NCBI RefSeq assembly: GCF_003207825.1
Contig: NZ_NKTY01000009.1
Coordinates: 1-64,000, forward strand
Source: Komagataeibacter saccharivorans
GTDB taxonomy: Bacteria; Pseudomonadota; Alphaproteobacteria; Acetobacterales; Acetobacteraceae
Reading direction: 5' to 3'
Length of the DNA stretch: 64,000 nucleotides
The notes beneath the pieces are model-generated. The model ran no database searches. It was given only the letters and a program-made list of their open reading frames with translations, and had not been told where the DNA came from. Within the stretch, counting starts at the first letter, position 1, and each line of letters begins with the position of its first letter. Below are positions 2,421 through 25,167 of the stretch, one piece after another. The position numbers were made by a program, and so were the translations under genes.

Positions 2421-5400
2421 TCAGTGTGCCCCCCCGGAAGGCGCGGGCGGCGGGGACGTATGGCGGGCGCGAAAGGCGGCAAAGCGCAGGCGCACCCGCT
2501 CCATGAACAGGTAGATGACCGGCGTGGTAAACAGTGTCAGCAACTGGCTGACAGCCAGACCACCCACAATGGCGTAACCCAGCGGCCGCCGCAGTTCCGA
2601 TCCCGTTCCGGTGCCGATCACCATGGGAATGGCCCCCAGCATGGCGGCCAGCGTCGTCATCAGGATCGGGCGGAAACGCAGCCGGGCCGCCCGGGTTATG
2701 GACTGCATGGAATCCATGCCTTCCTGCCGTTCGGCCTCCAGCGCGAAATCGATCATCATGATGGCGTTCTTCTTCACGATGCCGATCAGCAGGACGATCC
2801 CGATCACCCCCATCACATCCAGCCCGGACCCCGATACCCACAGCACCAGCAGCGCGCCAATGGCGGCCGAGGGCAGGGTGGACAGGATGGTCAGCGGGTG
2901 GATGAAGCTTTCATACAGAACACCCAGCACGATATAGACCGCAACAAGGGCCGCCAGTATCAGCCAGGCCTCGTTGCTCATGCTGCCCGCAAACACGGCG
3001 GCCGTGCCCTGAAACGATGTCTGCATGGTGGCGGGCAGATGCAGCGATTTTTCCACCCGCTCGATCGCATCGGTCGCAGCACCGAGGGAATAGCCGGGTG
3101 CGACGTTGAACGAGATGGTCGATGCCGGAAACTGCGCCACATGGGTAATCAGCAGCGGCGCGGTGGATGCTGTCATACGTGTCACCGTACTCATCGGCAC
3201 AAGGCCGGATGACGGGTCACGGGTCGGGCCGGACGTGCTTGCGGCCCCGCTGCCGCTGGCGGCAAGATACAGCCTGTCCAGAGCCTCCGGCGTGTTCTGA
3301 AGCGACGGTTCGGCCTCAAGGATCACCCTGTACTGGTTGGACTGGGTATAGATGGTGGAAATCTGACGCTGGCCAAAGGAATCATACAGCAGATTGTCCA
3401 CCGTTTCCGGCGTGATCGAGAAGCGTGCGCCCGTGGCCCGGTCCAACGTCACACTGGCCGCCAGTCCCTGCGCCTGCAGATCGGAGGTGACATCGGCCAG
3501 TGCCGGTTCCCTGCGCAGGGCGTCAGTCAGGCGCGGCACCCATATGGCAAGGCGGTTCGTGTCGGAATCCGCCACCAGAAACTGGTACTGGGTGGCCGAT
3601 ACATTGGTGTTCAATGTCAGATCCTGCACCGGCTGCAGGTAAAGCTGCGTACCGGCTATGGCGGCTGTCTCGCGCTGGATACGCTGCGCCACCTTTGCCG
3701 CCGACAGGCTGCGTTTGTCATGTGGCGTCAGGTTGATTTCAAAACGCCCCCGGTTGAGCGTGGTGTTGTCCCCATCCACCCCGATATAGGAGGACAGGCT
3801 GACAACATCCGCATCCTTCGCAATCGCTGCCCCCAACTGCTGCTGCAGTTCACGCATCGCATCGAACGAGATGGAGGCATCCATCACGGACACACCCTGA
3901 ATCACCCCGGTATCCTGTTCAGGAAACAGCCCCTTGGGAATGACAGCCACAAGCAGGCCGGTCAGCGCCAGCGTCGCCACGAACAGGGCAAGTGTCGCCC
4001 GCTGGTGACGCAGCACGCGTGTCAGCCCCCGGTCATAGGCATCGATGACCGAGACGATCAGCCGGTCGGTCGTCTGTGCCCAGCGCGGCTTGGTTACGGC
4101 GTGGGCCCTGTCCTTGAGCAGACGGGCGCACATCATCGGGACCAGCGTGAGAGAGACCACGGCGGACAGGATGATGGTGACCGCCAGTGTCACTGCGAAT
4201 TCATAAAACAGCCGCCCGATCACATCGCCCATGAACAGAAGCGGGATCAGCACGGCGATGAGCGAGATGGTCAGCGAGACGATGGTAAAGCCGATCTCGC
4301 CGGCACCTTCCAGCGCCGCAGTCATCCGGTCACGTCCCATCTCGATATAGCGGGCGATGTTCTCGATCATGACAATCGCATCATCCACCACGAAACCTGT
4401 CGAAATGGTGAGCGACATGAGAGAGAGGTTGTCGAGCGAGAAGCCCATCATATCCATCACCGCCAGCGTGCCGATAATGGACAGCGGCACGGACAGCGCC
4501 GGAATGACGGTGGCCGATGGATCATGCAGGAACACGAAGATCACGCCCACAACCAGCGCCAGCGCAAGAGCCAGTTCGAACTCCACATCCGCCACGGATG
4601 CGCGGATGGTGGTGGTCCGGTCGGTCAGCGGCGTGATGGTGACGCCGCCGGGCATGTCCTGCTGCAGTGATGGCAGCGTGGCCTTGATGGCGTTGACGGT
4701 GTTGATGATGTTGGCCGAAGGCTGACGGCGGATGTTCAGGATGATGGCCGGGGTCTGGTTCGACCATCCGGCAAGCTGGGTGTCTTCCGCCCCTTCCACC
4801 ACCGTTGCGATATCACGCAGCCGGACCGGGCCCTGACTGGTATCCGACCAGCCGACAACCTGATTGAGCAGCTGGTCGGTGCTGGAAATCTGGCTGTCGA
4901 TATGGATGGTGCGGTTCAGCTTTTTGCCATTGAAGCTGCCGGTAGGTGAATTGACGTTCACGTTGCCGATCGTGGTGCGCAGCGTATCAAGATCAATGCC
5001 CAGCGAGGTGGCTTTGGGCACATTCACGCGGACGCGGTAAGCCTTCTTGTTGCCACCGGACAGGGAGACTTCACCCACGCCGGAAATCTCGCTGATTTTC
5101 TGCTGCAGGCGTGTCGTCACGTAATCCTGCACTTCAGGCAGGGACAGGGTGGTGGACGTGACCCCCAGGATCATGATGGGCGTATCAGCCGGATTGACCT
5201 TGGAATAGATGGGCGGCGCGGGCAGGGCGGTTGGCAGCAGGGAATTGGCGGCGTTGATGGCCTCCTGCACCTCCTGCTCGGCAACATCCAGCGACGTGGT
5301 CAGCCCGAAACGCAGCGTGATGACCGACGCCCCGGCCGAGGACTGGGATGTCATCTGGTCCAGCCCCGCCATTTCGCCCATCTGCCCTTCCAGTGGCGCG

Positions 5401-5591
5401 GTGACGGAGGTCATCATCACATCCGCGCTGGCGCCGGGGTAGAAGGTGCGGACTACAATGGTGGGATAATCCACTTCCGGCAGGGCCGAAATCGGCAGGA
5501 ACCGATAGCCGATCAGACCCGCCAGCATCAACGCGAACATGAGCAGCGTGGTGGCGACGGGCCGCTGTATGAAAAGACGGGAGAGATTCAT
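2421..5591 (-). CDS. RND multidrug efflux permease (MdtB/MuxB-like)
   Basis: This 1,056-residue protein has the full length of the HAE-RND family: a short cytoplasmic start, TM1, a large periplasmic porter/docking domain, TM2-7, a second periplasmic domain and TM8-12. The TM4 proton-relay block GFVVDDAIVMIENI, the motif ISNTL-like NLLYDSFGQRQIST in the second half and the PILMTT motif near residue 980 are all recognisable. It should export drugs or toxic organics together with the fusion protein encoded just upstream. Its ATG shares one base with the stop of that gene, which implies coupled translation. Two different RND genes behind one fusion protein is the mdtABC/muxABC arrangement, normally a heteromeric pump. 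Here the partner is broken. Confidence 0.93.
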   Translation of the reverse strand: MNLSRLFIQRPVATTLLMFALMLAGLIGYRFLPISALPEVDYPTIVVRTFYPGASADVMMTSVTAPLEGQMGEMAGLDQMTSQSSAGASVITLRFGLTTSLDVAEQEVQEAINAANSLLPTALPAPPIYSKVNPADTPIMILGVTSTTLSLPEVQDYVTTRLQQKISEISGVGEVSLSGGNKKAYRVRVNVPKATSLGIDLDTLRTTIGNVNVNSPTGSFNGKKLNRTIHIDSQISSTDQLLNQVVGWSDTSQGPVRLRDIATVVEGAEDTQLAGWSNQTPAIILNIRRQPSANIINTVNAIKATLPSLQQDMPGGVTITPLTDRTTTIRASVADVEFELALALALVVGVIFVFLHDPSATVIPALSVPLSIIGTLAVMDMMGFSLDNLSLMSLTISTGFVVDDAIVMIENIARYIEMGRDRMTAALEGAGEIGFTIVSLTISLIAVLIPLLFMGDVIGRLFYEFAVTLAVTIILSAVVSLTLVPMMCARLLKDRAHAVTKPRWAQTTDRLIVSVIDAYDRGLTRVLRHQRATLALFVATLALTGLLVAVIPKGLFPEQDTGVIQGVSVMDASISFDAMRELQQQLGAAIAKDADVVSLSSYIGVDGDNTTLNRGRFEINLTPHDKRSLSAAKVAQRIQRETAAIAGTQLYLQPVQDLTLNTNVSATQYQFLVADSDTNRLAIWVPRLTDALRREPALADVTSDLQAQGLAASVTLDRATGARFSITPETVDNLLYDSFGQRQISTIYTQSNQYRVILEAEPSLQNTPEALDRLYLAASGSGAASTSGPTRDPSSGLVPMSTVTRMTASTAPLLITHVAQFPASTISFNVAPGYSLGAATDAIERVEKSLHLPATMQTSFQGTAAVFAGSMSNEAWLILAALVAVYIVLGVLYESFIHPLTILSTLPSAAIGALLVLWVSGSGLDVMGVIGIVLLIGIVKKNAIMMIDFALEAERQEGMDSMQSITRAARLRFRPILMTTLAAMLGAIPMVIGTGTGSELRRPLGYAIVGGLAVSQLLTLFTTPVIYLFMERVRLRFAAFRARHTSPPPAPSGGAH

Positions 5592-6832
5592 TATCCCCCC
5601 TGCGTCGTGGTGGCGGGAATGGTGACTTTCGCCCCTGCGTGCAGGCGGTCGATGCCCGATGTCACCACCTGCTCATCCGCCTTCAGGCCGGATGTGACAA
5701 CGACCGTATCCCCCTGACTGACACCGGTTTTGACCAGACGCACGGCCACGGTGCTGTCAGGCTGCACCACATAAACAAATGAACCATTGGGACCGGACTG
5801 GATGGCGCTGGCTGGGGCAAGCAGCACATCATGCTCGGTATCAACCAGAAGGTGGGCATTGACGAACTGGTTGGGGAACAGGTCCTCATCCTTGTTAGGG
5901 AACAGGGCGCGCAGCCGGACCGTGCCGGTCGAGGTATCGATCTGGCTGTCCAGACTGCTGACCGCGCCATCGGTCAGCTTCGTGGTGTCCGTGCTGTCCC
6001 ATGCCTCGACCGGCAGCGACTTTGCAGTACGCAGCCGTTTCCAGACCATGCCAAGCTTGTCCTGCGGCAGGGTAAAGATAACTGAAATCGGCTGCATCTG
6101 CGTCAGGACCGCAAGGCCGCCGGACTGTGCCGCGGTCACATAATTGCCCCGGTCCACCGCACGGATGCCCACACGGCCACTGACCGGCGCTGTGATGTGG
6201 CAGTATTCAATGTCCAGCCTGTAGGTATCGACCAGCCCCTGATCGGCTTCCACCGTGCCTTCAAGCTGCTTGACCTTGTACTGCTGGTCCTGTGCCGTCT
6301 GGGTATCGATACTGTCGCGTCTGAGCAGCTTCTGGTACCGGACGTTATCCATCCGCGCTTCATCAAGCTGGGCCTGATCGGCTGCGAGCTGCCCGGAATA
6401 CTGCTTCAGTTCGGCCTCATAGGGGCGGGGGTCGATGACCGCCAGCAGGTCACCCTCATGCACTTCCTGCCCTTCGGTAAAGAGCACCTGTGTCAGATAG
6501 CCTTCCACGCGGTTCTGCACGGTCACATTGGTGACGGGAATGACCGTACCCAGTTCGCTCAGCACCACGGGCATGTCGCCTGATTTTATGATCGCAACAG
6601 AGACGGGAATACCTTCATCCACCGCTTTTGTAGCCGCCCGCATCGGATGGGAACCGATCATAAGCAGCGCCGCCAGCAGGGCCATGCCCGTCAGGTTACG
6701 GTATCCAGTCGGCATTCCCCGGTCCGTGCAACCGGAAACACCACTCCATGGAACCGTAGACGAAGTAAAATCATCAATACGCTGCATTCTTCTTATATCC
6801 GTCTCTGTATTGCCTGGTGGATGCAGGGGCAT
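5591..6832 (-). CDS. RND efflux membrane fusion protein (MdtA-like)
   Basis: The protein has 413 residues from the ATG at 6832, which overlaps the stop of the sensor kinase by one base (TGATG). An N-terminal stretch of about 45 residues precedes a hydrophobic segment (LTGMALLAALLMIG), so initiation at an internal Met is also possible. The body has the periplasmic adaptor layout: a lipoyl-like half (VEGYLTQVLFTEGQEV), an alpha-helical hairpin rich in Gln, Leu and Ala, the second lipoyl half (ITAPVSGRVGIRAVD), then beta-barrel and membrane-proximal domains ending near VTSGLKADEQVVTSG. It links the RND pump to an outer-membrane channel. No TolC-type gene lies in this operon, so the channel must come from elsewhere. 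Confidence 0.9.
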   Translation of the reverse strand: MPLHPPGNTETDIRRMQRIDDFTSSTVPWSGVSGCTDRGMPTGYRNLTGMALLAALLMIGSHPMRAATKAVDEGIPVSVAIIKSGDMPVVLSELGTVIPVTNVTVQNRVEGYLTQVLFTEGQEVHEGDLLAVIDPRPYEAELKQYSGQLAADQAQLDEARMDNVRYQKLLRRDSIDTQTAQDQQYKVKQLEGTVEADQGLVDTYRLDIEYCHITAPVSGRVGIRAVDRGNYVTAAQSGGLAVLTQMQPISVIFTLPQDKLGMVWKRLRTAKSLPVEAWDSTDTTKLTDGAVSSLDSQIDTSTGTVRLRALFPNKDEDLFPNQFVNAHLLVDTEHDVLLAPASAIQSGPNGSFVYVVQPDSTVAVRLVKTGVSQGDTVVVTSGLKADEQVVTSGIDRLHAGAKVTIPATTTQGG

Positions 6833-8208
6833 CAATGCACTGAATGTGTCCGGCTGCGCGCGTGCGTGAACCGCTGCGGGTCAAGGGGCAGGGCGATACA
6901 CACCCGCAATCCGTGTGGCTGATTGGACTGAAAGTTCAGGCTGCCGCGATGGCGCTGCACGATGTCATGGATGATCGACAGACCCAGCCCCAGCCCACCG
7001 TCCGAACTACGGGCCGGGTCCAGCCGCGCGAAGGGTAGCAGGACGACATCGTGCATTTCAGTGGGGATGCCCGGACCGTCATCCGCGACCTCGATAATGG
7101 CTTCATTGCCATTGCGTCTTGTATCAACCTGCACCGTGCTACCGAATTTGCAGGCATTGTCGATCAGGTTGTTGACCATGCGGGAGACTGCCACCGGCTG
7201 GCACAGACAGGTCAGGCCCAGGTCGCCCTGATAGATCACATTCCGGCCGGTCGCCTCGAATTCCGCGCAGACACTTTCCACCAATGCGCCGATATCAACC
7301 CGTTCCGCCGGTTCCGTGTCACCCTGACCCTTCAGGAAAGACAGTGCCCCGTTCAGCATCCGGTTCATGAGCCACAGATCATTACGCAGGGCCGCAGGCG
7401 AAGCATCCGTCCCCCCCATTTCAATCCGCATGGACAGGCGGGTAAGCGGCGTGCGCAGGTCGTGGCCAATCGCCATAAGCATGCGGGTGCGCTCCTCCGC
7501 TGCTGCCGCGATACGGGCCTGCATGCGGTTGAAGGCGCGGGCCACGCGGCGCAGTTCCACAGGCCCCTGTTCCGTCAGCGGTTCGGGCGTAATGTCATAG
7601 CCAAAGGTTTCCGCCTTATTCGCAAGTACCTTAAGCGGGCGGTTGATGCGCCACAGGCTCCACAACGACAGCGTGCCCATTATGACCAGCAGCGACAGGA
7701 ATGACACGATCAGCGGCAGCGTTGCACGCATGAGCTGGGGCAGGTGATGATTGATCCCGTTATGGGCGGTAATGAATATCCCCTCGCGCGGCATGTCGAT
7801 ATGGGTGGAGGTCATACCGCTGGAATCCGCGGCACAGGTGGATTCCTTGATGACGGCATTCCGGTTGTTCATCTGCGCCTTGAGGATACGGCGCAGCAGG
7901 ACCGAAAAATGTTCGGTCGGAATGGGCTCGCAGGGGAAGGGGCCGGTCGTCTGGAACGATACATCCGGCGTAGACATGCCACGCGCAATCACTGCGCGTA
8001 TTTCGGGCGGGCCTGCACGCAATGCGTCAATAGCGGTCTCAATGGCCAGCGCGTTTGGCCATGGTCCTTCGGGCAGGGGCGGCACGGTTGGCCGCAACAC
8101 GAATACCAGAAAGGCAACAACAAAAATGGTGACCATCATGCTGGAAATCACGATCGCAACCATCTGCCCGTAAACGGTGCGGGGCAGTAGGGAAAAGCGG
8201 GTTTTCAT
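6832..8208 (-). CDS. Sensor histidine kinase of an EnvZ/OmpR-type pair
   Basis: This 458-residue protein has TM1 at about residues 15-38, a periplasmic region of about 125 residues, TM2 at about 163-185 and a HAMP linker. The phosphoacceptor block AIGHDLRTPLTRLS places the autophosphorylated His at about 249. The N box NLIDNACKFG, G1 box DDGPGIP and GLGLGLSII follow. It shares a 4-base ATGA overlap with the response regulator upstream, so the two are a cognate pair. Because the pump genes follow with 1-base overlaps, the likely role is sensing a compound the pump exports. The signal is unknown. Confidence 0.92.
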   Translation of the reverse strand: MKTRFSLLPRTVYGQMVAIVISSMMVTIFVVAFLVFVLRPTVPPLPEGPWPNALAIETAIDALRAGPPEIRAVIARGMSTPDVSFQTTGPFPCEPIPTEHFSVLLRRILKAQMNNRNAVIKESTCAADSSGMTSTHIDMPREGIFITAHNGINHHLPQLMRATLPLIVSFLSLLVIMGTLSLWSLWRINRPLKVLANKAETFGYDITPEPLTEQGPVELRRVARAFNRMQARIAAAAEERTRMLMAIGHDLRTPLTRLSMRIEMGGTDASPAALRNDLWLMNRMLNGALSFLKGQGDTEPAERVDIGALVESVCAEFEATGRNVIYQGDLGLTCLCQPVAVSRMVNNLIDNACKFGSTVQVDTRRNGNEAIIEVADDGPGIPTEMHDVVLLPFARLDPARSSDGGLGLGLSIIHDIVQRHRGSLNFQSNQPHGLRVCIALPLDPQRFTHARSRTHSVH

Positions 8209-9041
8209 CGGTCGGCAGCTCCCTTGTGGGACGCTGCCGGGCCTGGGTCGAACACATAGCCGTCGCCACGTACCGTCCGCAGCATCTCAAGCTGGCGACC
8301 GCCATGGGCCAGCTTGCGCCGCAGGCGGCTGACAAGCAGGTCAATGGTGCGTTCTTCAACGGCCCCCGGCGTATTATAGAGCAGTTCAATAATCCGCTGC
8401 CTGCTCAGCAATTCCCGCGCATGGTTCCACAATAGCAGGAGAAGGTCGGTTTCAGCCCCGGTCAGGGTCATGCGTATGCCCTCCGTGCTGTAAAGGGCGC
8501 GTTTTTCCGGAACGAAAGTCCAGTTTCCAAAGCTGTAGCCATGCTTTGGTTCGTGCGTGACAGCGGCTGCGTTACCCGACGGGCGACGCAGGACTGCCCG
8601 GATGCGGGCCGCAAGCTCCCCAAGATCGAAAGGCTTGCTGACGTAATCGTCCGCCCCGAGATCAAGCCCCGCAATCCGGTCACGGACATCGGCCAGGGCC
8701 GTAACCATGATGATGGGGGCAACGCTCCGCTCGCGGATCAGGCGGCAGATGGCATGGCCACTTTCCTGCGGCAGCATGAGATCAAGCAGGACAATATCAG
8801 GCGTGCGCCCAGCGAGGATGGCCAGCACCTCCGCCGCCGTCATGGCGGACGCTACCGCATAACCCTGCTGTGACAGGAAACGTGTCAGCAGGTTGCGGAT
8901 ATCCATGTCATCTTCCACGACAAGGACGAAATTCCGCCCTTTTTCAGCCGGGGAAACACCTGTTCCCTGCCTGTATGGAAGATCATGGCCTGACTGCCCC
9001 GCTATCAATCCGATACTCCGCGCCATTACATTCGCATTCAT
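8205..9041 (-). CDS. OmpR-family response regulator controlling the efflux operon
   Basis: The receiver domain begins near residue 37 (NFVLVVEDDMD), with the phosphorylatable Asp at about 87 (DIVLLDLMLP) and the conserved Lys in YVSKPFDLGEL. A winged-helix DNA-binding domain follows, with a final block VSRLRRKL and GDGYVF. From the ATG at 9041 there is an unusual 36-residue tail before the receiver. A second ATG at 9026 is equally possible, and neither has a clear ribosome-binding site. It is the first gene of the kinase-fusion protein-RND-RND operon, so it probably activates its own operon. Confidence 0.9.
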   Translation of the reverse strand: MNANVMARSIGLIAGQSGHDLPYRQGTGVSPAEKGRNFVLVVEDDMDIRNLLTRFLSQQGYAVASAMTAAEVLAILAGRTPDIVLLDLMLPQESGHAICRLIRERSVAPIIMVTALADVRDRIAGLDLGADDYVSKPFDLGELAARIRAVLRRPSGNAAAVTHEPKHGYSFGNWTFVPEKRALYSTEGIRMTLTGAETDLLLLLWNHARELLSRQRIIELLYNTPGAVEERTIDLLVSRLRRKLAHGGRQLEMLRTVRGDGYVFDPGPAASHKGAADR

Positions 9042-9685
9042 TCGACGGGGCAAAGTATAATCATGCCGCCACTCCGGCCTAGCAGATAGAAGCGGGGAGG
9101 AATTTTTATTTCAAAAATGACAAAAAAAGCATGAGAATTAAAAGAAAGTTTATGTGATATTGTATGTAACGGATTAATTCATTTTGTATTTATTTTGTAC
9201 AATTCCACAGGCGCAGTGCCAGAAAAGGAAGGATGAATACTCTGCGTGTTTCAGCATCACCCGGTGGTCATACAGTTCACTTCCGAACTTTGCAGCGTCG
9301 CAGACATGACAGCGGGCAATGTCACTTCATGACGCAGACAACCACCGCATCAAGGCAATGGGCGGCCCGGCGCCGCATTAATGGAAGTCACAACTCATCT
9401 GCGATGAAAGCGATCCCTGTTTGATACCTTTGCGGCGAAACTCCCGCCAGTCACGACGCTTTATAGCGGCATAAAGCATGATTCATGGCGACCGAAAGGA
9501 CAGCCCATGTCACGCCTCCGCAGCTTTACCTGCCGCCGACTGCCCGAAAATACGGCAGGTCATGGAGGACAGGCATTGCATCACGGGCACAGCAGGCAAG
9601 AAGAACCCGGCAGCCATCCCGATGCACCAGATAAAGACAGTCACAGCGTAAGATAACGTCCATAATCCCAACAGCAGGTGTCGCC
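9042..9685. other. Intergenic region between the divergent efflux and NHEJ genes
   Basis: No convincing gene was found in these 644 bases. The stretch 9085-9210 is much more A+T-rich than its surroundings (runs of A and T, poor codon structure) and probably carries the promoter of the leftward efflux operon. The remainder towards the ku gene is ordinary GC content. A short leftward ORF near 9510-9701 encodes one hydrophobic segment but has no ribosome-binding site and overlaps the ku start. Confidence 0.5.
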
Positions 9686-10533
9686 ATGGTCGCACGGGCA
9701 AGCTGGAAAGGTATTCTTGCGATCGGGGAACTCACATGTCCGGTTGCCCTCTATGCGGCAGTCTCGGCTTCCGAACGGGTTACCCTGCATCTGATCAACC
9801 GTCGCACGGGCAATCGGGTGCATCGCCACTATATCGACAGCAAGGACGGCACTGAAGTGGACCGGGACGATCAGGTCAGGGGCTACGAGACGCAAGATGG
9901 CGAGATCATTCTGCTTGAGCCCGGGGAAATCGCCGCCGCCGTTCCGGACAGCGACAGAAGGCTGGCGCTTTCCGCCTTCGTGCGATGCAGCGAAGTTGAC
10001 GATGTCTATCTGGACCGGCCCTATTACCTCTGCCCGGCGGAACCGGCGGCAGGAGCGACCCTTGCACTGATCCACGACAGTCTTGCCCGCCAGAAGGTCG
10101 CGGCCCTGACCACCACAGTCCTGTTCCGTCGCGTGCGGACGTTGCTGATCCGGGCGCACGATGACAGGCTGATTGCAACAACGCTGAACTTTGATGATGA
10201 AGTCCGCCCGGCACAGGACGCTTTTCGCGATATTCCGGGCCGAGACTGTCGCGGGAAATGCTGGATCTGGCAGCCCATATTATTGAAACGAAAAAGGGGC
10301 ATTTCACACCGGCAGACTATACCGACCGTTATGAAGCCCTTCTTGCGGATCTGGTACGGGCAAAACTGGCCGGCAAAAAGCCGCGCCTCGCACGGCGTCC
10401 GGCAGCAGGCGGGGTCGTCAGCCTGCTGGACGCCCTGCGTGAAAGTGCCGGCACGCCAGAAAGTGGCACACCATCGCCCCACAGGGACCAAAACAGTCCC
10501 CGCCCATCCCGTACCCGGCGTAGGGCAGGCTGA
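9686..10533 (+). pseudogene. ku: Ku-type DNA end-binding protein, disrupted by a one-base frameshift
   Basis: Bacterial Ku binds double-strand ends and recruits LigD. The frame from the ATG at 9686 starts MVARASWKGILAIGEL and runs through the ring-forming core (HLINRRTGNRVHRHYID, YLCPAEP) to FRDIPGRD at about 10246. The family pattern then continues only in the next frame (LSREMLDLAAHIIETKKG, then DYTDRYEALLADLV) to the stop at 10531-10533. Restoring one base near 10246 would give a normal Ku of about 282 residues with a basic C-terminal tail. The uncorrected frame runs on with meaningless sequence to 10627. The phosphoesterase ORF starts two bases after the Ku stop, so they form one unit. 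This is either a real loss or a sequencing error. Confidence 0.88.
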
Positions 10534-10535
10534 CC

Positions 10536-11117
10536 GTGTCGCTCGATACCTATCGCCAGAAGCGCGACTTCCACAAAACGCAGGAACCAGCAGGCGAAGG
10601 GCAGCACTTCGTTGTCCAGAAGCATGATGCCCGAAGACTGCATTATGATTTTCGTCTTGAACTGGATGGCGTGCTGAAAAGCTGGGCTGTAACCAGAGGA
10701 CCAAGCCTTGTGCCGGGTGAAAAGCGTCTGGCCGTCCAGGTGGAAGACCACCCGCTGGATTATGGTGATTTTGAAGGCACCATCCCCGCAGGCCAGTACG
10801 GGGGCGGCACGGTGGCCATATGGGATCGGGGCACATGGACCCCGACAGGGGACGCAGGACAGGGTCTGGCCAAGGGGCATCTTGATTTTGAACTGCACGG
10901 GCAGAAGCTCACCGGGCACTGGCATCTGGTCCGGATGAAAGGCAGGCCACGCGACAGGCATGACAACTGGCTTCTGATCAAGGCCGATGATGAGGCCGCC
11001 CGTAGTGCGGATGATCCCGATATCCTCAAAGAACAGCCCCTGTCGGTCAAAAGCGGTCGGACCATCACCGAAATTGCGGAAAGCATGCCGCCTTTCCCAA
11101 AGATAGGTAAAGCATAA
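10536..11117 (+). CDS. ligD (PE part): LigD 3'-phosphoesterase domain as a separate protein
   Basis: This 193-residue protein from a GTG start matches the phosphoesterase domain that trims 3' ends during non-homologous end joining. Visible family features are KHDARRLHYDFRLELDG (residues about 29-45), WAVTRGPSLVPGEKRLA, and the DYGDFEGTIPAGQYGGGTV block, whose His and Asp residues bind the metal. It ends with VKSGRTITEIAES, the linker that normally leads into the ATP-dependent ligase domain. Here a stop comes 16 residues later, before any ligase motif. Free-standing PE proteins do exist, but the ligase tail still readable downstream shows this one arose by deletion within a PE-ligase-polymerase LigD. 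The protein may still be folded and active. Confidence 0.88.
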   Translation: MSLDTYRQKRDFHKTQEPAGEGQHFVVQKHDARRLHYDFRLELDGVLKSWAVTRGPSLVPGEKRLAVQVEDHPLDYGDFEGTIPAGQYGGGTVAIWDRGTWTPTGDAGQGLAKGHLDFELHGQKLTGHWHLVRMKGRPRDRHDNWLLIKADDEAARSADDPDILKEQPLSVKSGRTITEIAESMPPFPKIGKA

Positions 11118-11136
11118 AAAACGCCGGTTTCTTCAT

Positions 11137-11256
11137 CCAGGGCACCAGCCATTCCGTCAGGAAAGCAGCACGGGCTGGACCGCGGATAACCGGCTTCGCC
11201 ATGCTGCCTTTCGCGGTGTCCGGGACGACAGACCGGCTGAGGAGATCATTCGTGAG
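11137..11256 (+). pseudogene. Remnant of the LigD ligase domain C-terminus
   Basis: In the frame of the downstream polymerase ORF the bases read TGWTADNRLRHAAFRGVRDD followed by RPAEEIIREMPV. This is the end of the OB-fold of LigD ligases, whose usual form is LRHxSFxGLREDKPAxEVV. The KxDG nucleotidyl-transfer motif and the rest of the ligase, roughly 280 residues, are absent. The remnant is in a different frame from the phosphoesterase ORF. It has no start codon of its own and is best read as the scar of an internal deletion. Confidence 0.75.
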
Positions 11257-12183
11257 ATGCCAGTCATGGACACATCATCGGCCCAGCCCGAAAAACAACC
11301 CGCACGCACTGTCACCCTGACCCATCCCGACCGGGTTTACTGGCCCGATGCCGGTATTACCAAGGCAGGGCTGGCCGACTACTATACGGCGATATGGCCC
11401 CGTATCGCGCCGTTTATTATCGACCGGCCACTTGCGCTGCTGCGCTGCCCGGAGGGGATGGAAGGACCGCACTTTTTCCAGAAAAACGCATGGAAAGGCA
11501 TGAACACCCATATCGTGCCGCTGGATGACCCGATGGGAGATGCCGCGGGGCATCTGATCGGGATTCATGAGCTTGATGGCCTTATGGGGCTGGTGCAGGG
11601 GGCAACGCTGGAAATTCATCCCTGGGGGGCATCCTGCCGCGACTGGGACCATCCCGATACACTGGTCATGGACCTTGATCCGGGGGAAGGGGTTGAGTGG
11701 CAGGCCGTCATCACGGCTGCGCAGGAAGTGCGCGAACGGCTTGAAGCCAGTGGCCTGGCGGCATTCGTCAAGACGTCCGGGGGCAAAGGGCTGCATGTCG
11801 TAGCGCCTTTGCAACCCGCAGCCGACTGGGATATGGCAAAAACCTTCTCCCACACCATGGCGCAGGCGATGGCAGCCGACAGTCCGGACCGCTTTGTCGC
11901 GACTGTGTCCAAAGCGAAGCGCCATGGCAGAATCCTGATTGATTACCTGCGCAATCAACGGGGCGCGACCTCCGTATCCCCCTATTCAACGCGTGCCCGC
12001 ACCGGTGCCCCGGTCTCGATGCCTGTTGGGTGGGAAGAACTGGATACGATTACCGGTCCGGCGCAATTCACGGTAAACAACGCCATGGAACGGCTTGCCT
12101 CACTCCGCACGGACCCGTGGGAGGATTTTCCAGCGGCGCGTCAGCCGATCACGACAGCAATGCTTTCCCGGCCGGGTCATTAG
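11257..12183 (+). CDS. ligD (Pol part): LigD polymerase/primase domain as a separate protein
   Basis: This 308-residue protein matches the archaeo-eukaryotic primase-type polymerase of LigD, which adds nucleotides to broken ends. Visible are THPDRVYWPDAGITK at the start, the HPWG motif, the metal-binding block MDLDPGEGVEWQ, the nucleotide-binding block TSGGKGLHVVAPL, and ILIDYLRNQRGATSVSPYS with the RTGAPVSMPVGW tail. These are the complete domain's motifs. The frame is open upstream through the ligase remnant, and the ATG at 11257 is preceded by GAGGAG. Its last four bases overlap the end of the second ku gene on the other strand. No ligase gene is present in the window to complete the pathway. 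Confidence 0.9.
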   Translation: MPVMDTSSAQPEKQPARTVTLTHPDRVYWPDAGITKAGLADYYTAIWPRIAPFIIDRPLALLRCPEGMEGPHFFQKNAWKGMNTHIVPLDDPMGDAAGHLIGIHELDGLMGLVQGATLEIHPWGASCRDWDHPDTLVMDLDPGEGVEWQAVITAAQEVRERLEASGLAAFVKTSGGKGLHVVAPLQPAADWDMAKTFSHTMAQAMAADSPDRFVATVSKAKRHGRILIDYLRNQRGATSVSPYSTRARTGAPVSMPVGWEELDTITGPAQFTVNNAMERLASLRTDPWEDFPAARQPITTAMLSRPGH

Positions 12184-13001
12184 GAACCGTTCCTGTCAGA
12201 TGATTTGAGGCTTGCCCTGAGCGTATCCACGATGTTCACGATTTTTTCTTCCGCCGGTGGTTCGGACCGCCTGACTGGCCTGCTTCTGCGCGACCGTCTG
12301 CGGGCATCAATGATTCCCTTCAGGCGCGCCTGCACCGGATCATGGACCATGGCCGCATTCCAGGGACGGGTAAGCCCGGCCATGACCTTCCCAAGCTGCG
12401 CAACATCCTGCCTGTTCAGGGCGGGGATGTCCCCCGCCGGAAGGGAATCCGCCGGATCGCGCATGTCCACACCGTAACGGAGCGTCCATACCACAATCCC
12501 GTTATCCCTTGGCTCCAGCAATACGGCATGTTCCCGTCGATAAAGAACCAGTCGCGCAATACCGACCGTGCCGGTATGACGCATGGCATCACGGATGACG
12601 GTGAAGGCTTCGGTGCCGATTTCATCATCCGGCAGCAGATAATGCGGCGTATCGTACCAGACCCAGCCAATCGCCTCCCTATCCACAAAACATTCGATAT
12701 CAATGGTACGTGTGCTTTCCAGCGCAATGGCGTCGAGTTCGTCGTCCTCCAGCACAACATACTGGTCATCACCGCACGGATAACCCTTTACAAGATCACC
12801 ATCATCGACCGGCGTACTGGTTACGGCATCCACATACTGAACGAACACCCGGTTTCCCGTCTGCCGGTTCATCATATGGAAGCGGATACGCTCGGCTTCC
12901 GTTCTGGCCGGTATCATGGATACGGCACAGGTTACGAGGGAGAGCCTGAGATGCCCAGCCCAGAACGGCCTGCCTGCCATTGTCCAGTCCCTCCCGCTCA
13001 T
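12180..13001 (-). CDS. ku: Ku-type DNA end-binding protein, second copy, intact
   Basis: This 273-residue protein begins MAGRPFWAGHLRLSLVTC after seven extra residues and keeps the Ku core: MMNRQTGNRVFVQYVD, the GYPCGDDQYVVLEDDELD block, YLLPDD and the helix VAQLGKVMAGLTRPWN. It ends in a basic tail with RRRSRRSRPVRRS, typical of Ku proteins that contact LigD or DNA. It differs clearly from the first Ku, so it is not a recent duplicate. It converges with the polymerase ORF, with four bases shared at the stops. If the first copy is really frameshifted, this is the working Ku of the locus. Some alpha-proteobacteria carry several Ku proteins that act in pairs, so loss of one could still matter. 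Confidence 0.9.
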   Translation of the reverse strand: MSGRDWTMAGRPFWAGHLRLSLVTCAVSMIPARTEAERIRFHMMNRQTGNRVFVQYVDAVTSTPVDDGDLVKGYPCGDDQYVVLEDDELDAIALESTRTIDIECFVDREAIGWVWYDTPHYLLPDDEIGTEAFTVIRDAMRHTGTVGIARLVLYRREHAVLLEPRDNGIVVWTLRYGVDMRDPADSLPAGDIPALNRQDVAQLGKVMAGLTRPWNAAMVHDPVQARLKGIIDARRRSRRSRPVRRSEPPAEEKIVNIVDTLRASLKSSDRNGS

Positions 13002-13162: not shown

Positions 13163-13468
13163 CTATTTCTCTTCGTTTTCCCGGCGCGTTTCAGCGGCTT
13201 TCCGGGCGGAAGCGGAGCGTTCCTCCGCCGGGCGATGGGCTGAGGCTGCCCCGCCGATCTTTCCGCCCCTGCGGGAGGGTTCGTGCGTTACGGTATGCCC
13301 CCTGCCTGAGCCACTTTTCTTGCCGCCGCCCGTCTCCTTGTTGACCGTAGCCCAGGCGCGGCGCTCGGCCTCATCCTCGTCGATACCGCGCTGCTCGTAG
13401 CTTTCCTCGATATGTTGGGCCTGTCGCTTCTGTTTGTCCGTATAAGCGGACTTGTCTCCACGTGGCAT
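13163..13468 (-). CDS. Small basic protein of the 'plasmid stabilization protein' type
   Basis: The protein has 101 residues from the ATG at 13468, starting MPRGDKSAYTDKQKRQAQHI. It has a first half rich in charged helix (EESYEQRGIDEDEAERRAW) and then a glycine/lysine-rich tail with GGGKKSGSG, RRGGKIGG and an Ala/Arg/Glu helix. Database proteins with this start are usually labelled plasmid stabilization protein without experimental support. The basic, low-complexity tail suggests nucleic-acid binding. It often sits near stress or DNA-repair genes, and here it follows the NHEJ island on the same strand as the second ku, 161 bases downstream of nothing else. Longer upstream starts in this frame lack the family pattern. 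Confidence 0.7.
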   Translation of the reverse strand: MPRGDKSAYTDKQKRQAQHIEESYEQRGIDEDEAERRAWATVNKETGGGKKSGSGRGHTVTHEPSRRGGKIGGAASAHRPAEERSASARKAAETRRENEEK

Positions 13469-19557: not shown

Positions 19558-19841
19558 ACGATCACCCGCTGTAGTTTTTAATCTATATCATCATTACCAA
19601 TGATGGAATTGTTCCACATCACTGATCGTAGTTCAATTGGTTTTCACATTTAATATGATTAAATTAATCGAGATCGCATCATTCCAACATTATCTCGGAT
19701 ACACACATGCCTTTCGCCGGGCAGATCAACCGATATTAAAACGATTCGTATTGTCATATTGACTCGTATCCGAACTTATGAACGATTATATGTAGTGGTA
19801 ATCATATATGCACATATGATTCGTTTATTTTGAGGGATGCA
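19558..19841. promoter_or_regulatory. Divergent promoter region of ssuCBA and the TonB receptor, with two palindromes
   Basis: The region is distinctly A+T-rich. CATCATT-ACC-AATGATG at 19589-19605 is a perfect 7-3-7 palindrome near the ssuC start. AATCATAT-ATGCAC-ATATGATT at 19800-19821 is a perfect 8-6-8 palindrome ending 20 bases before the receptor ATG. Both look like operator sites, but they differ from each other and no regulator gene is adjacent. Confidence 0.45.
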
Positions 19842-22349
19842 ATGCGCGCCATACCGGACGGACAGCAGAATTTACGATGGCCATCATCGGACAGGCGTCT
19901 GGTCGCGCATTGTTCCCTGGCCTTCTCGCTGCTGGTGACGACGGGCGTCATCAACCCCGGCCATGCCGCCGACAGCCCGAGCAATCCGCAGCGCGCCCCG
20001 AAAGCCGTAAAGTCCCATTCCCCGGCAACGCGCAGCACGAACGCCGTGATCGCTACGCATCCCGAGGAAATGAAGGTCACCGCCACGCGCTCCCTGTCGC
20101 GGCGTCAGATCCTTGCACGGCAGAACGACCCCGTGGCTGTGACGACCATCACCGAACACGATCTGCAATCCCACCAGATCACCAACATACAGCAGGCTGT
20201 AAAACTGCTGCCCGCGGTCTCGCTTCAGGTCACCAATCCCCGTAACACGGCCATCAACGTGCGCGGCCTTGGCAATTTCAGTTCCAGCGCGCAGGACGGG
20301 CTGGAAAACGGTACGGCTGTCTATATCGACGGCGTGTACCAGACACGGCCCGGCGCCGTACTGGGCGACATCAGCGATCTGGCGGGCATGGAGGTTCTCA
20401 AGGGCCCGCAGGCTACGCGTGGTGGGGTGGATAACGATGGCGGCGCGATCAACATCACCACGCTCGCGCCATCCTTTACGCGGGGCTACTCCGTCACCGG
20501 CGATTATGGCAGTTACAATACCGCCAATGTCCGGCTACGGGCCACCGGCCCGATCGGCAGCAGCGACAAGGTCGCCTATAGCCTGTCCGGATTTTCGATC
20601 AATCATGACGGTTATATAAAAAACGTCACGACAGGGCGGGATTATCAGGATTATCACGATATTGGCGTAAAGGGGCAGATACTGGCGGTTCCGACTGACA
20701 GGCTGACAATCCGCCTGATCGTCGATTATTCGCATCTTAAGGAAAGCTGCTGCGTCACACCTTTTTCCACGGCACTTACCCACTATGCCAACGGGGCGGC
20801 CGTGGTGGGAAATTACTGGCAACGCGCTGCCTTTGCGGGGGCTGAGACGCTGCCCGCCCATGGCGTCCGTGACATGCTGGTGGCCCTGCCATCCACCGGC
20901 AGTCAGGCCGTGGATCAGGAAACGTACGGTGTCTCGCTGGATGTTACCTATCGGCTGCCGCATGGATGGAAACTGGAAAATACCGCGGCATGGCATTCAT
21001 GGCTGTGGTACCCGCATAACGGATTTTCCGGTGGTCTTGGCACCATACCGGGGTTGCGGACGCTGACCGCTGGCAACAATCAGGTATATGAACAGCACGC
21101 CACGGAAGAACTGAAGATATCGTCCCCCGAAGGACGCCGTTTCCACATATCCGCCGGTGCTTTCTACATGTATGAGGAAGTGCCGGATTATACGCGCTGG
21201 CAGATTTCTGCGCAGGGTGCAAAGTATTATGGCTACGGCCTGTCGCCTGCCGTGTACAATTCCGCCTATAATGGTGCGCTGTTCAGATCATCGGATAATC
21301 CGATCACCAACGACCTTGCGGGCTATGTGCGCGCGAAATACGACATTACATCGAAACTCTCCATTGAAGGGGGATTCCGGTATTCCTTTGTCACCAAGTC
21401 AGGCAGCTATACATCAACCATCGTCAACTCATCCAACCCGTCACTTGCTGCGGGGGTGCTGGGGGCGGCGACGTCCTATCACGCATTCCATCGGGAAAGC
21501 GAACCCAGCGGCACGCTAAGCCTTGTGTACCGTCCAACCGGCAACAATCTGGTCTATGCCACCTACAGTCGCGGATTGAGGAATGGCGGGATCAATCTGG
21601 TCAGCCTGAACATCGCGCAGGGCGCCAATCCGGACGTGAAACCGGAACTCGACGACATGTTCGAGGTCGGAAGCAAGAATGCGTTTTTCAACAAACGGCT
21701 CGTGGTCAATTTCGACGCATTCTGGAACAACGTGCATGATTACATCACCAGTGCCGCATATTATACTTCGGCTGGCACCACGATTTCATATCTGACAAAC
21801 GCCAAACACGTTGTTTCGCGCGGGCTGGAACTTGAAACACGCGGCACCATCCTCCCCGGGCTGGAGGGCCGCCTGTCCGCATCCTATACCGATGCCTTCT
21901 TCGCATCATTCAATAACGCGTCCCATCCGCTGGAATCTTCCAACGTGTCAGGACTGTACAGTCTGACGGGAAACCAGATTCCGCTGAATTCCCGATGGAA
22001 CCTGTCCGCCGGTCTGGAATATACTACGCATCTCAGAAACATCGGCAATGTATCCGGTCGGTTCTGGCGACAGCTCGTGTTCTTTGTGGGTGCGGATTAT
22101 ACCTATCGCAGCAGTTATTATGCCGACGCATCCGAATCTTCCTATACGCGCATAAGACCGTACGGGCTGCTGGATGGTCATATCGGCATACGGCCTGAAT
22201 CGGGCAAATGGGACCTCAGTTTCTGGGGACATAACATGCTGGACAAGCGGTATTTCATTACCATGACACCCCTTGCCGCCGGAGCCGTGTTTTACGGGCA
22301 ACTCGGCGACCCGGCGATGTTCGGTGGTGAATTCAGCTATCGTCTGTAG
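19842..22349 (+). CDS. TonB-dependent outer-membrane receptor beside the sulfonate importer
   Basis: From the ATG at 19842, six bases after GAGG, the protein has 835 residues. It has an N-terminal export signal around SLAFSLLVTTGVINPGHAA, a TonB-box region near EEMKVTATRS, and a plug domain (VTTITEHDLQSHQITNIQQA, VRGLGN, IDGVYQTRPG, VLKGPQATRGG). The beta-barrel ends with the outer-membrane signature FSYRL. The family imports scarce nutrients using TonB energy. The divergent ABC genes suggest an organosulfur ligand, by analogy with SftP, a TonB receptor linked to sulfate-ester uptake in Pseudomonas putida. That is inference. No Fur-like box was seen upstream, which argues against a siderophore. 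Confidence 0.9.
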   Translation: MRAIPDGQQNLRWPSSDRRLVAHCSLAFSLLVTTGVINPGHAADSPSNPQRAPKAVKSHSPATRSTNAVIATHPEEMKVTATRSLSRRQILARQNDPVAVTTITEHDLQSHQITNIQQAVKLLPAVSLQVTNPRNTAINVRGLGNFSSSAQDGLENGTAVYIDGVYQTRPGAVLGDISDLAGMEVLKGPQATRGGVDNDGGAINITTLAPSFTRGYSVTGDYGSYNTANVRLRATGPIGSSDKVAYSLSGFSINHDGYIKNVTTGRDYQDYHDIGVKGQILAVPTDRLTIRLIVDYSHLKESCCVTPFSTALTHYANGAAVVGNYWQRAAFAGAETLPAHGVRDMLVALPSTGSQAVDQETYGVSLDVTYRLPHGWKLENTAAWHSWLWYPHNGFSGGLGTIPGLRTLTAGNNQVYEQHATEELKISSPEGRRFHISAGAFYMYEEVPDYTRWQISAQGAKYYGYGLSPAVYNSAYNGALFRSSDNPITNDLAGYVRAKYDITSKLSIEGGFRYSFVTKSGSYTSTIVNSSNPSLAAGVLGAATSYHAFHRESEPSGTLSLVYRPTGNNLVYATYSRGLRNGGINLVSLNIAQGANPDVKPELDDMFEVGSKNAFFNKRLVVNFDAFWNNVHDYITSAAYYTSAGTTISYLTNAKHVVSRGLELETRGTILPGLEGRLSASYTDAFFASFNNASHPLESSNVSGLYSLTGNQIPLNSRWNLSAGLEYTTHLRNIGNVSGRFWRQLVFFVGADYTYRSSYYADASESSYTRIRPYGLLDGHIGIRPESGKWDLSFWGHNMLDKRYFITMTPLAAGAVFYGQLGDPAMFGGEFSYRL

Positions 22350-25121: not shown

Positions 25122-25167
25122 ATTTACTAAATAAGCGGTCGGGAACGTCATATCGTGAGCTTTGATA

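What the first reader, a model, noticed from the sequence alone, without database searches (positions are those of the whole stretch)
10536..12183. LigD with the ligase domain cut out, leaving phosphoesterase and polymerase as two proteins
The phosphoesterase ORF stops just after the linker that normally enters the ligase domain, while the OB-fold tail of that domain can still be read right before the polymerase ORF. About 280 residues are missing. Either the locus is decaying, or end processing is kept while another ligase seals the break.
Basis: partly seen in the sequence, partly recalled or inferred. Interest (0 to 1): 0.6.

Follow-up and report, generated by a model that had tools for sequence, protein, structure and literature searches.

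The report
DNA-repair cassette eroding to its polymerase
In this vinegar-type bacterium a DNA-break repair gene set has lost its sealing (ligase) part, and its relatives show the polymerase part kept alone and protected by selection after the rest is gone, which suggests that the polymerase has a repair job of its own.

Summary
Window 10536-12183 is a LigD gene whose ligase domain (residues 192-482 of an intact 818-aa homologue) is missing. A complete phosphoesterase (PE) ORF, a short OB-fold relic and a complete polymerase (Pol) ORF remain, between Ku1 (frameshifted) and Ku2 (intact, opposite strand). No ATP-dependent ligase was found in the genome. Intact Ku1(+)-LigD(+)-Ku2(-) cassettes in a sister genus and across alphaproteobacteria show that the ligase was lost here. 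The wider picture is more interesting than the split. Five other Komagataeibacter species and two species of a neighbouring genus keep only Pol; in six of these seven it follows the DUF1264 gene whose relic lies before Ku1 in the window. A second lineage (G239, G240) shows the same reduction separately. Codon models give omega 0.13-0.16 on these ligase-free Pol branches and strongly reject 1. Best reading: an NHEJ cassette caught in mid-erosion, from which Pol is retained as a stand-alone Prim-Pol, most likely for ribonucleotide gap filling in excision repair. That function is inferred, not shown. Against it: 12 of 19 Komagataeibacter have no such Pol at all. In other genera of the family, PE plus Pol are kept without a ligase domain.

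The parts
9436..9539 (+). relic of the 5' end of a DUF1264 gene, which in relatives stands directly before the stand-alone Pol
   Evidence: blastn 77% over 105 nt to L014 (E 1.5e-15), 74-76% to three other relatives; Pfam DUF1264 on the intact relative; full protein not found in this genome, though that search had no positive control
9686..10246 (+). Ku1, N-terminal part (Ku beta-barrel) in its original frame
   Evidence: PF02735 E 6e-36; frame change near 10246
10234..10533 (+). Ku1, C-terminal part in a shifted frame
   Evidence: TIGR02772 positions 186-258 of 259
10536..11117 (+). LigD 3'-phosphoesterase domain as its own ORF (GTG start)
   Evidence: PF13298 1-107 of 107; best solved match 3n9b, E 4.5e-62
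11097..11172 (+). deletion scar where about 291 residues of ligase domain are missing
   Evidence: no alignment to intact LigD protein or DNA here
11176..11256 (+). relic of the OB-fold tail of the ligase domain, in frame with Pol
   Evidence: matches G060 LigD from residue 483
11257..12183 (+). LigD primase-polymerase domain as its own ORF (ATG in the old linker)
   Evidence: PF21686 1-254 of 254; best solved match 2fao, E 1.9e-62; omega 0.127 on its branch
12180..13001 (-). Ku2, full length
   Evidence: PF02735 E 1.7e-40; TIGR02772 1-259 of 259
13163..13468 (-). small basic protein gene that marks the far edge of the cassette in g43 and g73 relatives
   Evidence: 83-89% identity in G060, G236, G241, G242, G239, G240, G090; no Pfam match

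Best explanation
The locus is a former NHEJ cassette (Ku1, LigD, Ku2) in the middle of erosion. SHOWN by comparison: the ancestor had a three-domain LigD between two Ku genes; here the ligase domain is gone and Ku1 is out of frame; sister species have lost Ku1, PE, ligase and Ku2 but keep the Pol ORF. SHOWN statistically: Pol without ligase evolves under strong purifying selection, in two lineages that do not form one clade. INFERRED: end joining by this cassette no longer works (no ATP-dependent ligase found, one Ku broken). INFERRED: the stand-alone Pol is a template-dependent Prim-Pol that fills short gaps, probably with ribonucleotides as Prim-PolC does, and general excision-repair enzymes (probably PolA, RNase HII and the NAD-dependent LigA) finish the product. 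I put about 0.85 on erosion with selective retention of Pol and about 0.4 on the excision-repair mechanism; the figure below is for the statement as a whole.
For: Ligase domain absent, PE and Pol complete. No PF01068 in the genome. Intact cassettes in outgroups, same layout. Genus of 19: Pol in 7, Ku in 1, PF01068 in 1. A Ku1+LigD+Ku2 query finds only Pol in the five Komagataeibacter and two g73 orphan genomes and in G240, and only Pol plus an OB scrap in G239. DUF1264 gene before Pol in 6 of 7 Komagataeibacter/g73 orphans, its relic before Ku1 here. Window plus seven orphans form a clade (96/93); G239 and G240 fall among fused g43 LigDs (99/97); all ten as one clade rejected, p-AU 0.009. Omega 0.163 (Komagataeibacter/g73 orphans), 0.143 (g43 orphans), 0.127 (window), 0.115 (background); omega = 1 rejected with 2dlnL 335.7, 40.5, 43.8. 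104-107 of 108 columns invariant in 19 fused homologues are kept in each of the nine orphans, 106 in the window. The OB relic beside Pol is out of frame in G239 while Pol is open. Prim-PolC fills short gaps with rNTPs (PMC5663958, passages).
Against: 12 of 19 Komagataeibacter and 2 of 4 g73 genomes have no such Pol, so it is dispensable. The Komagataeibacter/g73 orphans are slightly relaxed against the background (2dlnL 8.57). Known gap-filling Prim-PolC works with the ATP-dependent LigC; no PF01068 ligase is found in these genomes, so a partner is missing. No expression or activity data. The window branch could be constrained simply because its losses are recent. The p-AU test named its group after the tree was seen.
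Confidence: 0.62

Rival explanations
1. Simple decay: the whole cassette is a pseudogene in progress, and PE, Pol and Ku2 are open only because the loss is recent.
For: Ligase domain gone and Ku1 out of frame; Ku1 branch omega 0.193 against 0.094 in the background (2dlnL 4.22); DUF1264 neighbour reduced to a relic; 12 of 19 genus members have no Pol.
Against: Stand-alone Pols are open in the 7 orphan species of Komagataeibacter/g73 and in 2 of g43, with omega 0.14-0.16 and 1 strongly rejected. It remains possible for PE and Ku2 of the window alone.
Confidence: 0.22
2. A working ligase-free end-processing system: PE, Pol and Ku2 still trim and fill broken ends, and a general ligase such as LigA seals them.
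For: PE, Pol and Ku2 are full length with low omega on the window branch (0.083, 0.118, 0.161). Ligase-free PE plus Pol is kept in other genera of the family: two adjacent ORFs in G119 and G175, one ORF in G042, G129, G105, G044 and the second locus of G021; near-branch omega 0.091 (PE) and 0.141 (Pol).
Against: Ku1 is broken. Of the ligase-free PE-Pol genomes in other genera only G021 has Ku, and all of them have some PF01068 ligase, unlike this genome. The closest relatives dropped PE and Ku.
Confidence: 0.12
3. Assembly or sequencing error produced the missing ligase domain and the frameshift.
For: Draft genome in 107 contigs; no reads available; the Ku1 defect is one small frame change.
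Against: No ligase match anywhere in the genome; no N and no long repeat at the junction. In nine other assemblies the orphan Pol also begins in the OB tail or the OB/Pol linker (query positions 759-790, against 758 here).
Confidence: 0.04

Closest known systems
LigD of bacterial NHEJ (PE-ligase-Pol) with Ku genes on both sides, as in g43/g49 and many alphaproteobacteria
   Same: Same gene order Ku1(+), PE, Pol, Ku2(-), 74-79% protein identity to the G060 cassette for PE, Pol and Ku1
   Different: Ligase domain missing, PE and Pol in separate ORFs, Ku1 out of frame, no other PF01068 ligase in the genome
Prim-PolC (LigC-associated stand-alone Prim-Pol of mycobacteria; PMC5663958, passages)
   Same: Stand-alone LigD-type polymerase outside a LigD protein; proposed gap-filling role
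   Different: Prim-PolC is encoded near LigC ligases and works with them; here no PF01068 ligase was found, and the sequence falls inside the LigD-Pol tree of alphaproteobacteria
Stand-alone PolK and PolR of Streptomyces (PMC5124664, passages)
   Same: LigD-type Pol as a separate gene; PolK beside a ku gene
   Different: There they are partners of LigC or LigD in the same genome; here they derive in place from a three-domain LigD that lost its ligase
[quoted passage not shown]
   Same: The state is covered by that scheme, filed as 'NHEJ-' or, if Ku is present, 'Ku only'
   Different: In the passages read such genomes are not examined for selection, locus history or repeated origin
Ligase-free PE plus Pol of G119/G175 (two ORFs) and G042/G129/G105/G044/G021 (one ORF), same family
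   Same: PE and Pol kept without a ligase domain at the locus, under constraint in the four genomes tested
   Different: Different Pol clades; no Ku beside them; a PF01068 ligase elsewhere in each genome

Membership tests
LigD (three-domain NHEJ ligase) | 3'-phosphoesterase domain | tested here: met
   PF13298 1-107 of 107
LigD (three-domain NHEJ ligase) | ATP-dependent ligase domain | tested here: not met
   PF01068 absent from the genome; residues 192-482 missing
LigD (three-domain NHEJ ligase) | primase-polymerase domain | tested here: met
   PF21686 1-254 of 254; 106 of 108 invariant columns kept
LigD (three-domain NHEJ ligase) | domains in one protein | tested here: not met
   PE and Pol lie in different frames, with a stop between them
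Ku-dependent bacterial NHEJ | intact Ku | tested here: inconclusive
   Ku2 full length, Ku1 out of frame near 10246; whether Ku2 works alone is unknown
Ku-dependent bacterial NHEJ | a ligase able to seal ends with Ku | tested here: inconclusive
   no PF01068; LigA not searched for
Prim-PolC gap-filling system | genomic association with a LigC-type ATP ligase | tested here: not met
   no PF01068 in the genome
Prim-PolC gap-filling system | C-terminal loop 3; preference for short gaps over overhangs | not tested
   loop 3 is described in PMC5663958 (passages); no structure was modelled here and activity needs an assay
Stand-alone LigD-type polymerase under selection | purifying selection on Pol without ligase | tested here: met
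   omega 0.127-0.163, omega = 1 rejected in all three foreground classes; simulation check

The most novel reading that the evidence does not exclude
In acetic acid bacteria and their kin NHEJ does not simply disappear: its LigD is repeatedly pared down to the polymerase (in other genera to PE plus polymerase), and the remnant is kept by selection as a repair enzyme that needs neither Ku nor, in the Komagataeibacter group, any ATP-dependent ligase. The window is a surviving intermediate on that path. The polymerase domain would then have a cellular job that is separable from end joining and outlives it.
Probability: 0.48. Interest if true: 0.68.

Novelty: new variant of a known kind. Interest (0 to 1): 0.52.

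Why it matters
What the polymerase domain of LigD does outside end joining is hard to study, because it is normally fused to the ligase and served by Ku. Here evolution has removed Ku, PE and ligase and kept the polymerase, in two lineages of bacteria that (general knowledge, no call) can be cultured and are not pathogens. A single gene deletion could test a Ku-independent role. It also suggests that surveys which file PE/POL-without-LIG genomes as lacking NHEJ can hide a maintained repair enzyme.

Tried and rejected
Rejected or left open: (1) Ligase moved elsewhere in the genome: no match. (2) Ligase never present at this locus: refuted by intact outgroups. (3) One single loss for all ten ligase-free Pols of this group: p-AU 0.009 against (group named after the tree was seen). 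(4) Whether the window and the seven orphans share one first ligase deletion: not resolved. The break points differ, the window's place as sister of six orphans has support 99/88 in one tree and 92/79 in another, and a clade of the seven orphans without the window is not rejected (p-AU 0.135). (5) A repeat or IS at the deletion: nothing found. (6) The G012 ligase as partner of its Pol: it lies on a 40 kb contig whose surroundings look phage-like to me (judged by eye). (7) Rfam and tRNA scans of the window: 0 and 0.

Limits. The codon model is my own script, checked with one simulated set per value: one omega per branch class, no site variation, gapped columns dropped. In one search I gave it 25 of 32 rows; left out were the three second-copy Pols, Paracoccus, Brucella, Bosea and G245. 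One search, with 17 rows, gave the same picture (orphans 0.166, window 0.134, background 0.119). Counts rest on one genome per species, and the 220 family genomes are drawn from a larger group. The sets were typed from the printed lists. The 17 'Pol without Ku' genomes include G169, whose Pol match is partial (56 of 254 positions), and G149, where tblastn shows a Ku fragment beside LigD. The search for DUF1264 in the own genome had no positive control. g1 = Komagataeibacter follows from equal contig lengths of L110/L111 and G002/G010. g43 is probably Gluconacetobacter, but that name comes from no call. Structure prediction and fold search were not used.

Literature: LigD with Komagataeibacter (0 papers), with Acetobacteraceae (4, none on this by title), with Gluconacetobacter (1, unrelated by title), ligase-domain-loss phrases (1, the Prim-PolC paper); wider LigD searches were seen as listings. 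Only the held open library was searched. PMC7719229, PMC5124664, PMC8656161 and PMC5663958 were seen as passages, no paper in full.

Full report
Observation. Window 10536-12183 holds the two ends of a LigD gene. Against an intact 818-aa LigD (G060) the window aligns over residues 2-191 and 483-807 and lacks 192-482. Both ORFs cover their Pfam domains from end to end and match solved PE and Pol structures. The OB tail is readable at 11176-11256, in frame with Pol but before its first listed start codon. The window has no N and no long repeat at the scar.

Surroundings. The gene lies between two Ku genes. Ku2 (12180-13001, minus) is full length. Ku1 (9686-10533) is split over two frames near 10246. 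A small basic protein gene (13163-13468, minus) marks the far edge in relatives too. Just before Ku1 lies a 104-base relic of the start of a DUF1264 gene. The full DUF1264 protein was not found in this genome, by a search without a positive control.

Genome content. The genome has no PF01068 match and no LigD or Ku piece outside this locus. In 220 genomes of the family, Pol is found in 80, PF01068 in 154, Ku in 63 and PE in 72. All 63 Ku genomes have Pol. The window's genome is the only Ku genome (1 of 63) and the only PE genome (1 of 72) without PF01068. Pol without PF01068 occurs in 3 of 80 (G000, G090, G158). Pol without Ku occurs in 17 of 80; one of these (G169) is a partial Pol match, and another (G149) shows a Ku fragment by tblastn.

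What the ancestor looked like. G060, G140, G230 and G066 and G236, G241, G242 carry Ku1(+)-LigD(+)-Ku2(-) with a ligase domain. In G060, G236, G241 and G242 the same small gene stands beyond Ku2. The layout is widespread: of 80 loci kept from genome contigs (of 89 found), 64 have PE-LIG-POL in one frame by a strict test, and 43 of these 64 show Ku1(+) before and Ku2(-) after. So the ligase domain was lost here.

What the sisters look like. In the genus (Komagataeibacter, 19 genomes) Pol is found in 7, Ku in 1 (the window's) and PF01068 in 1. Five of the seven, besides the window, have Pol at 76-79% identity as a stand-alone ORF. The seventh, G012, has a Pol of another lineage (44%), and its PF01068 hit lies on a 40 kb contig that looks phage-like. 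Two of four g73 genomes also have a lone Pol. In these seven orphan genomes a Ku1+LigD+Ku2 query matches Pol only, while the positive control G236 rings for all parts. In six of the seven a DUF1264 gene stands before Pol; in G014 none was seen in the 9.8 kb held. In the window the relic of that gene stands before Ku1. So most orphan Pols are what is left of the same cassette, in place.

Two separate reductions. G239 and G240 of g43 keep Pol and the small gene at the locus. The Ku1+LigD+Ku2 query finds no Ku, PE or ligase in their genomes beyond an OB scrap. Their Pols fall among fused g43 LigDs (99/97), whereas the window plus the seven orphans form another clade (96/93). Holding all ten together is rejected (p-AU 0.009; group chosen after seeing the tree). 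In G239 the OB relic beside Pol is out of frame while Pol is open; in G240 it is still in frame.

Selection. With a branch-class codon model on 25 Pols and 270 codons, omega is 0.115 in the background, 0.127 on the window branch, 0.163 on Komagataeibacter/g73 orphans and 0.143 on g43 orphans. Omega = 1 is rejected with 2dlnL 43.8, 335.7 and 40.5. Only the Komagataeibacter/g73 class differs from the background (2dlnL 8.57, slight relaxation). One simulation per value gave 0.90-1.33 for a true 1 and 0.10-0.17 for a true 0.15. Of 108 columns invariant in 19 fused homologues, the window keeps 106, the seven orphans 104-107 each and the two g43 orphans 107 each. For the other window genes the branch is long and includes time before any loss: PE 0.083, Ku2 0.161, Ku1 0.193; the last exceeds its background of 0.094 (2dlnL 4.22). 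So constraint without the ligase is shown for Pol in relatives, not for PE or Ku2 here.

Precedents in the family. PE plus Pol without a ligase domain at the locus occurs as two ORFs in G119 and G175 and as one ORF in G042, G129, G105, G044 and a second locus of G021. Near-branch omega in G042, G129, G119 and G175 is 0.091 for PE and 0.141 for Pol, with 1 rejected (2dlnL 83.8 and 94.3). Of these genomes only G021 has Ku, and all have some PF01068 ligase. A further lone Pol (55-56% identity) stands in G140, G237 and G243, genomes that also have a LigD-length Pol frame.

Mechanism. Shown: erosion of an NHEJ cassette and retention of a constrained Pol. Inferred: loss of end joining, because no ATP ligase was found and one Ku is broken. 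Most likely job of the remaining Pol, by analogy with Prim-PolC (PMC5663958, passages), is filling short 5'-phosphorylated gaps with ribonucleotides in excision repair, finished by general enzymes. LigA, RNase HII and PolA were not searched for here, and this step has no direct evidence from this genome. The lack of the gene in 12 of 19 Komagataeibacter shows that it is not essential.

Known or new. Stand-alone LigD-type polymerases are known, and a survey files PE/POL-without-LIG genomes as 'NHEJ-' or 'Ku only'. I found no description of a repeated in-place reduction of a Ku-LigD-Ku cassette to a selected Pol in the held library. I rate it a new variant of a known kind.

Noticed in passing
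L094 (G119) 5895-7369; L095 (G175) 6916-8399: PE and Pol as two adjacent ORFs with no ligase domain and no Ku at the locus, under constraint: the same split as in the window, in another genus.
   Followed up: partly
L087 (G042), L093 (G129), L096 (G105), L097 (G021), L098 (G044): PE-Pol in one ORF (506-611 aa frames) without a ligase domain; only G021 of these genomes has Ku.
   Followed up: partly
L105 (G140), L213 (G237), L214 (G243): A further stand-alone Pol (frames 301-335 aa, 55-56% identity) in g43 genomes that also have a LigD-length Pol frame; it departs from the fused homologues at 16 of 108 invariant columns.
   Followed up: partly
L104 (G012:C4) 8540-9490: The only PF01068 hit among 19 Komagataeibacter genomes; it lies on a 40 kb contig and its surroundings look phage-like by eye.
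   Followed up: partly
L208 (G239) and L209 (G240), just upstream of Pol: A DUF1269 gene and a small coiled-looking protein without Pfam match stand where Ku1-PE-ligase used to be.
   Followed up: no
window 13163-13468, minus strand: Small basic protein of 101 aa, conserved at the edge of the cassette in g43 and g73, no Pfam match.
   Followed up: partly
window 2421-5591, 19830-22349, 25162-27435, 31869-34361: An AcrB-type pump and three TonB-dependent receptors in the same window.
   Followed up: no
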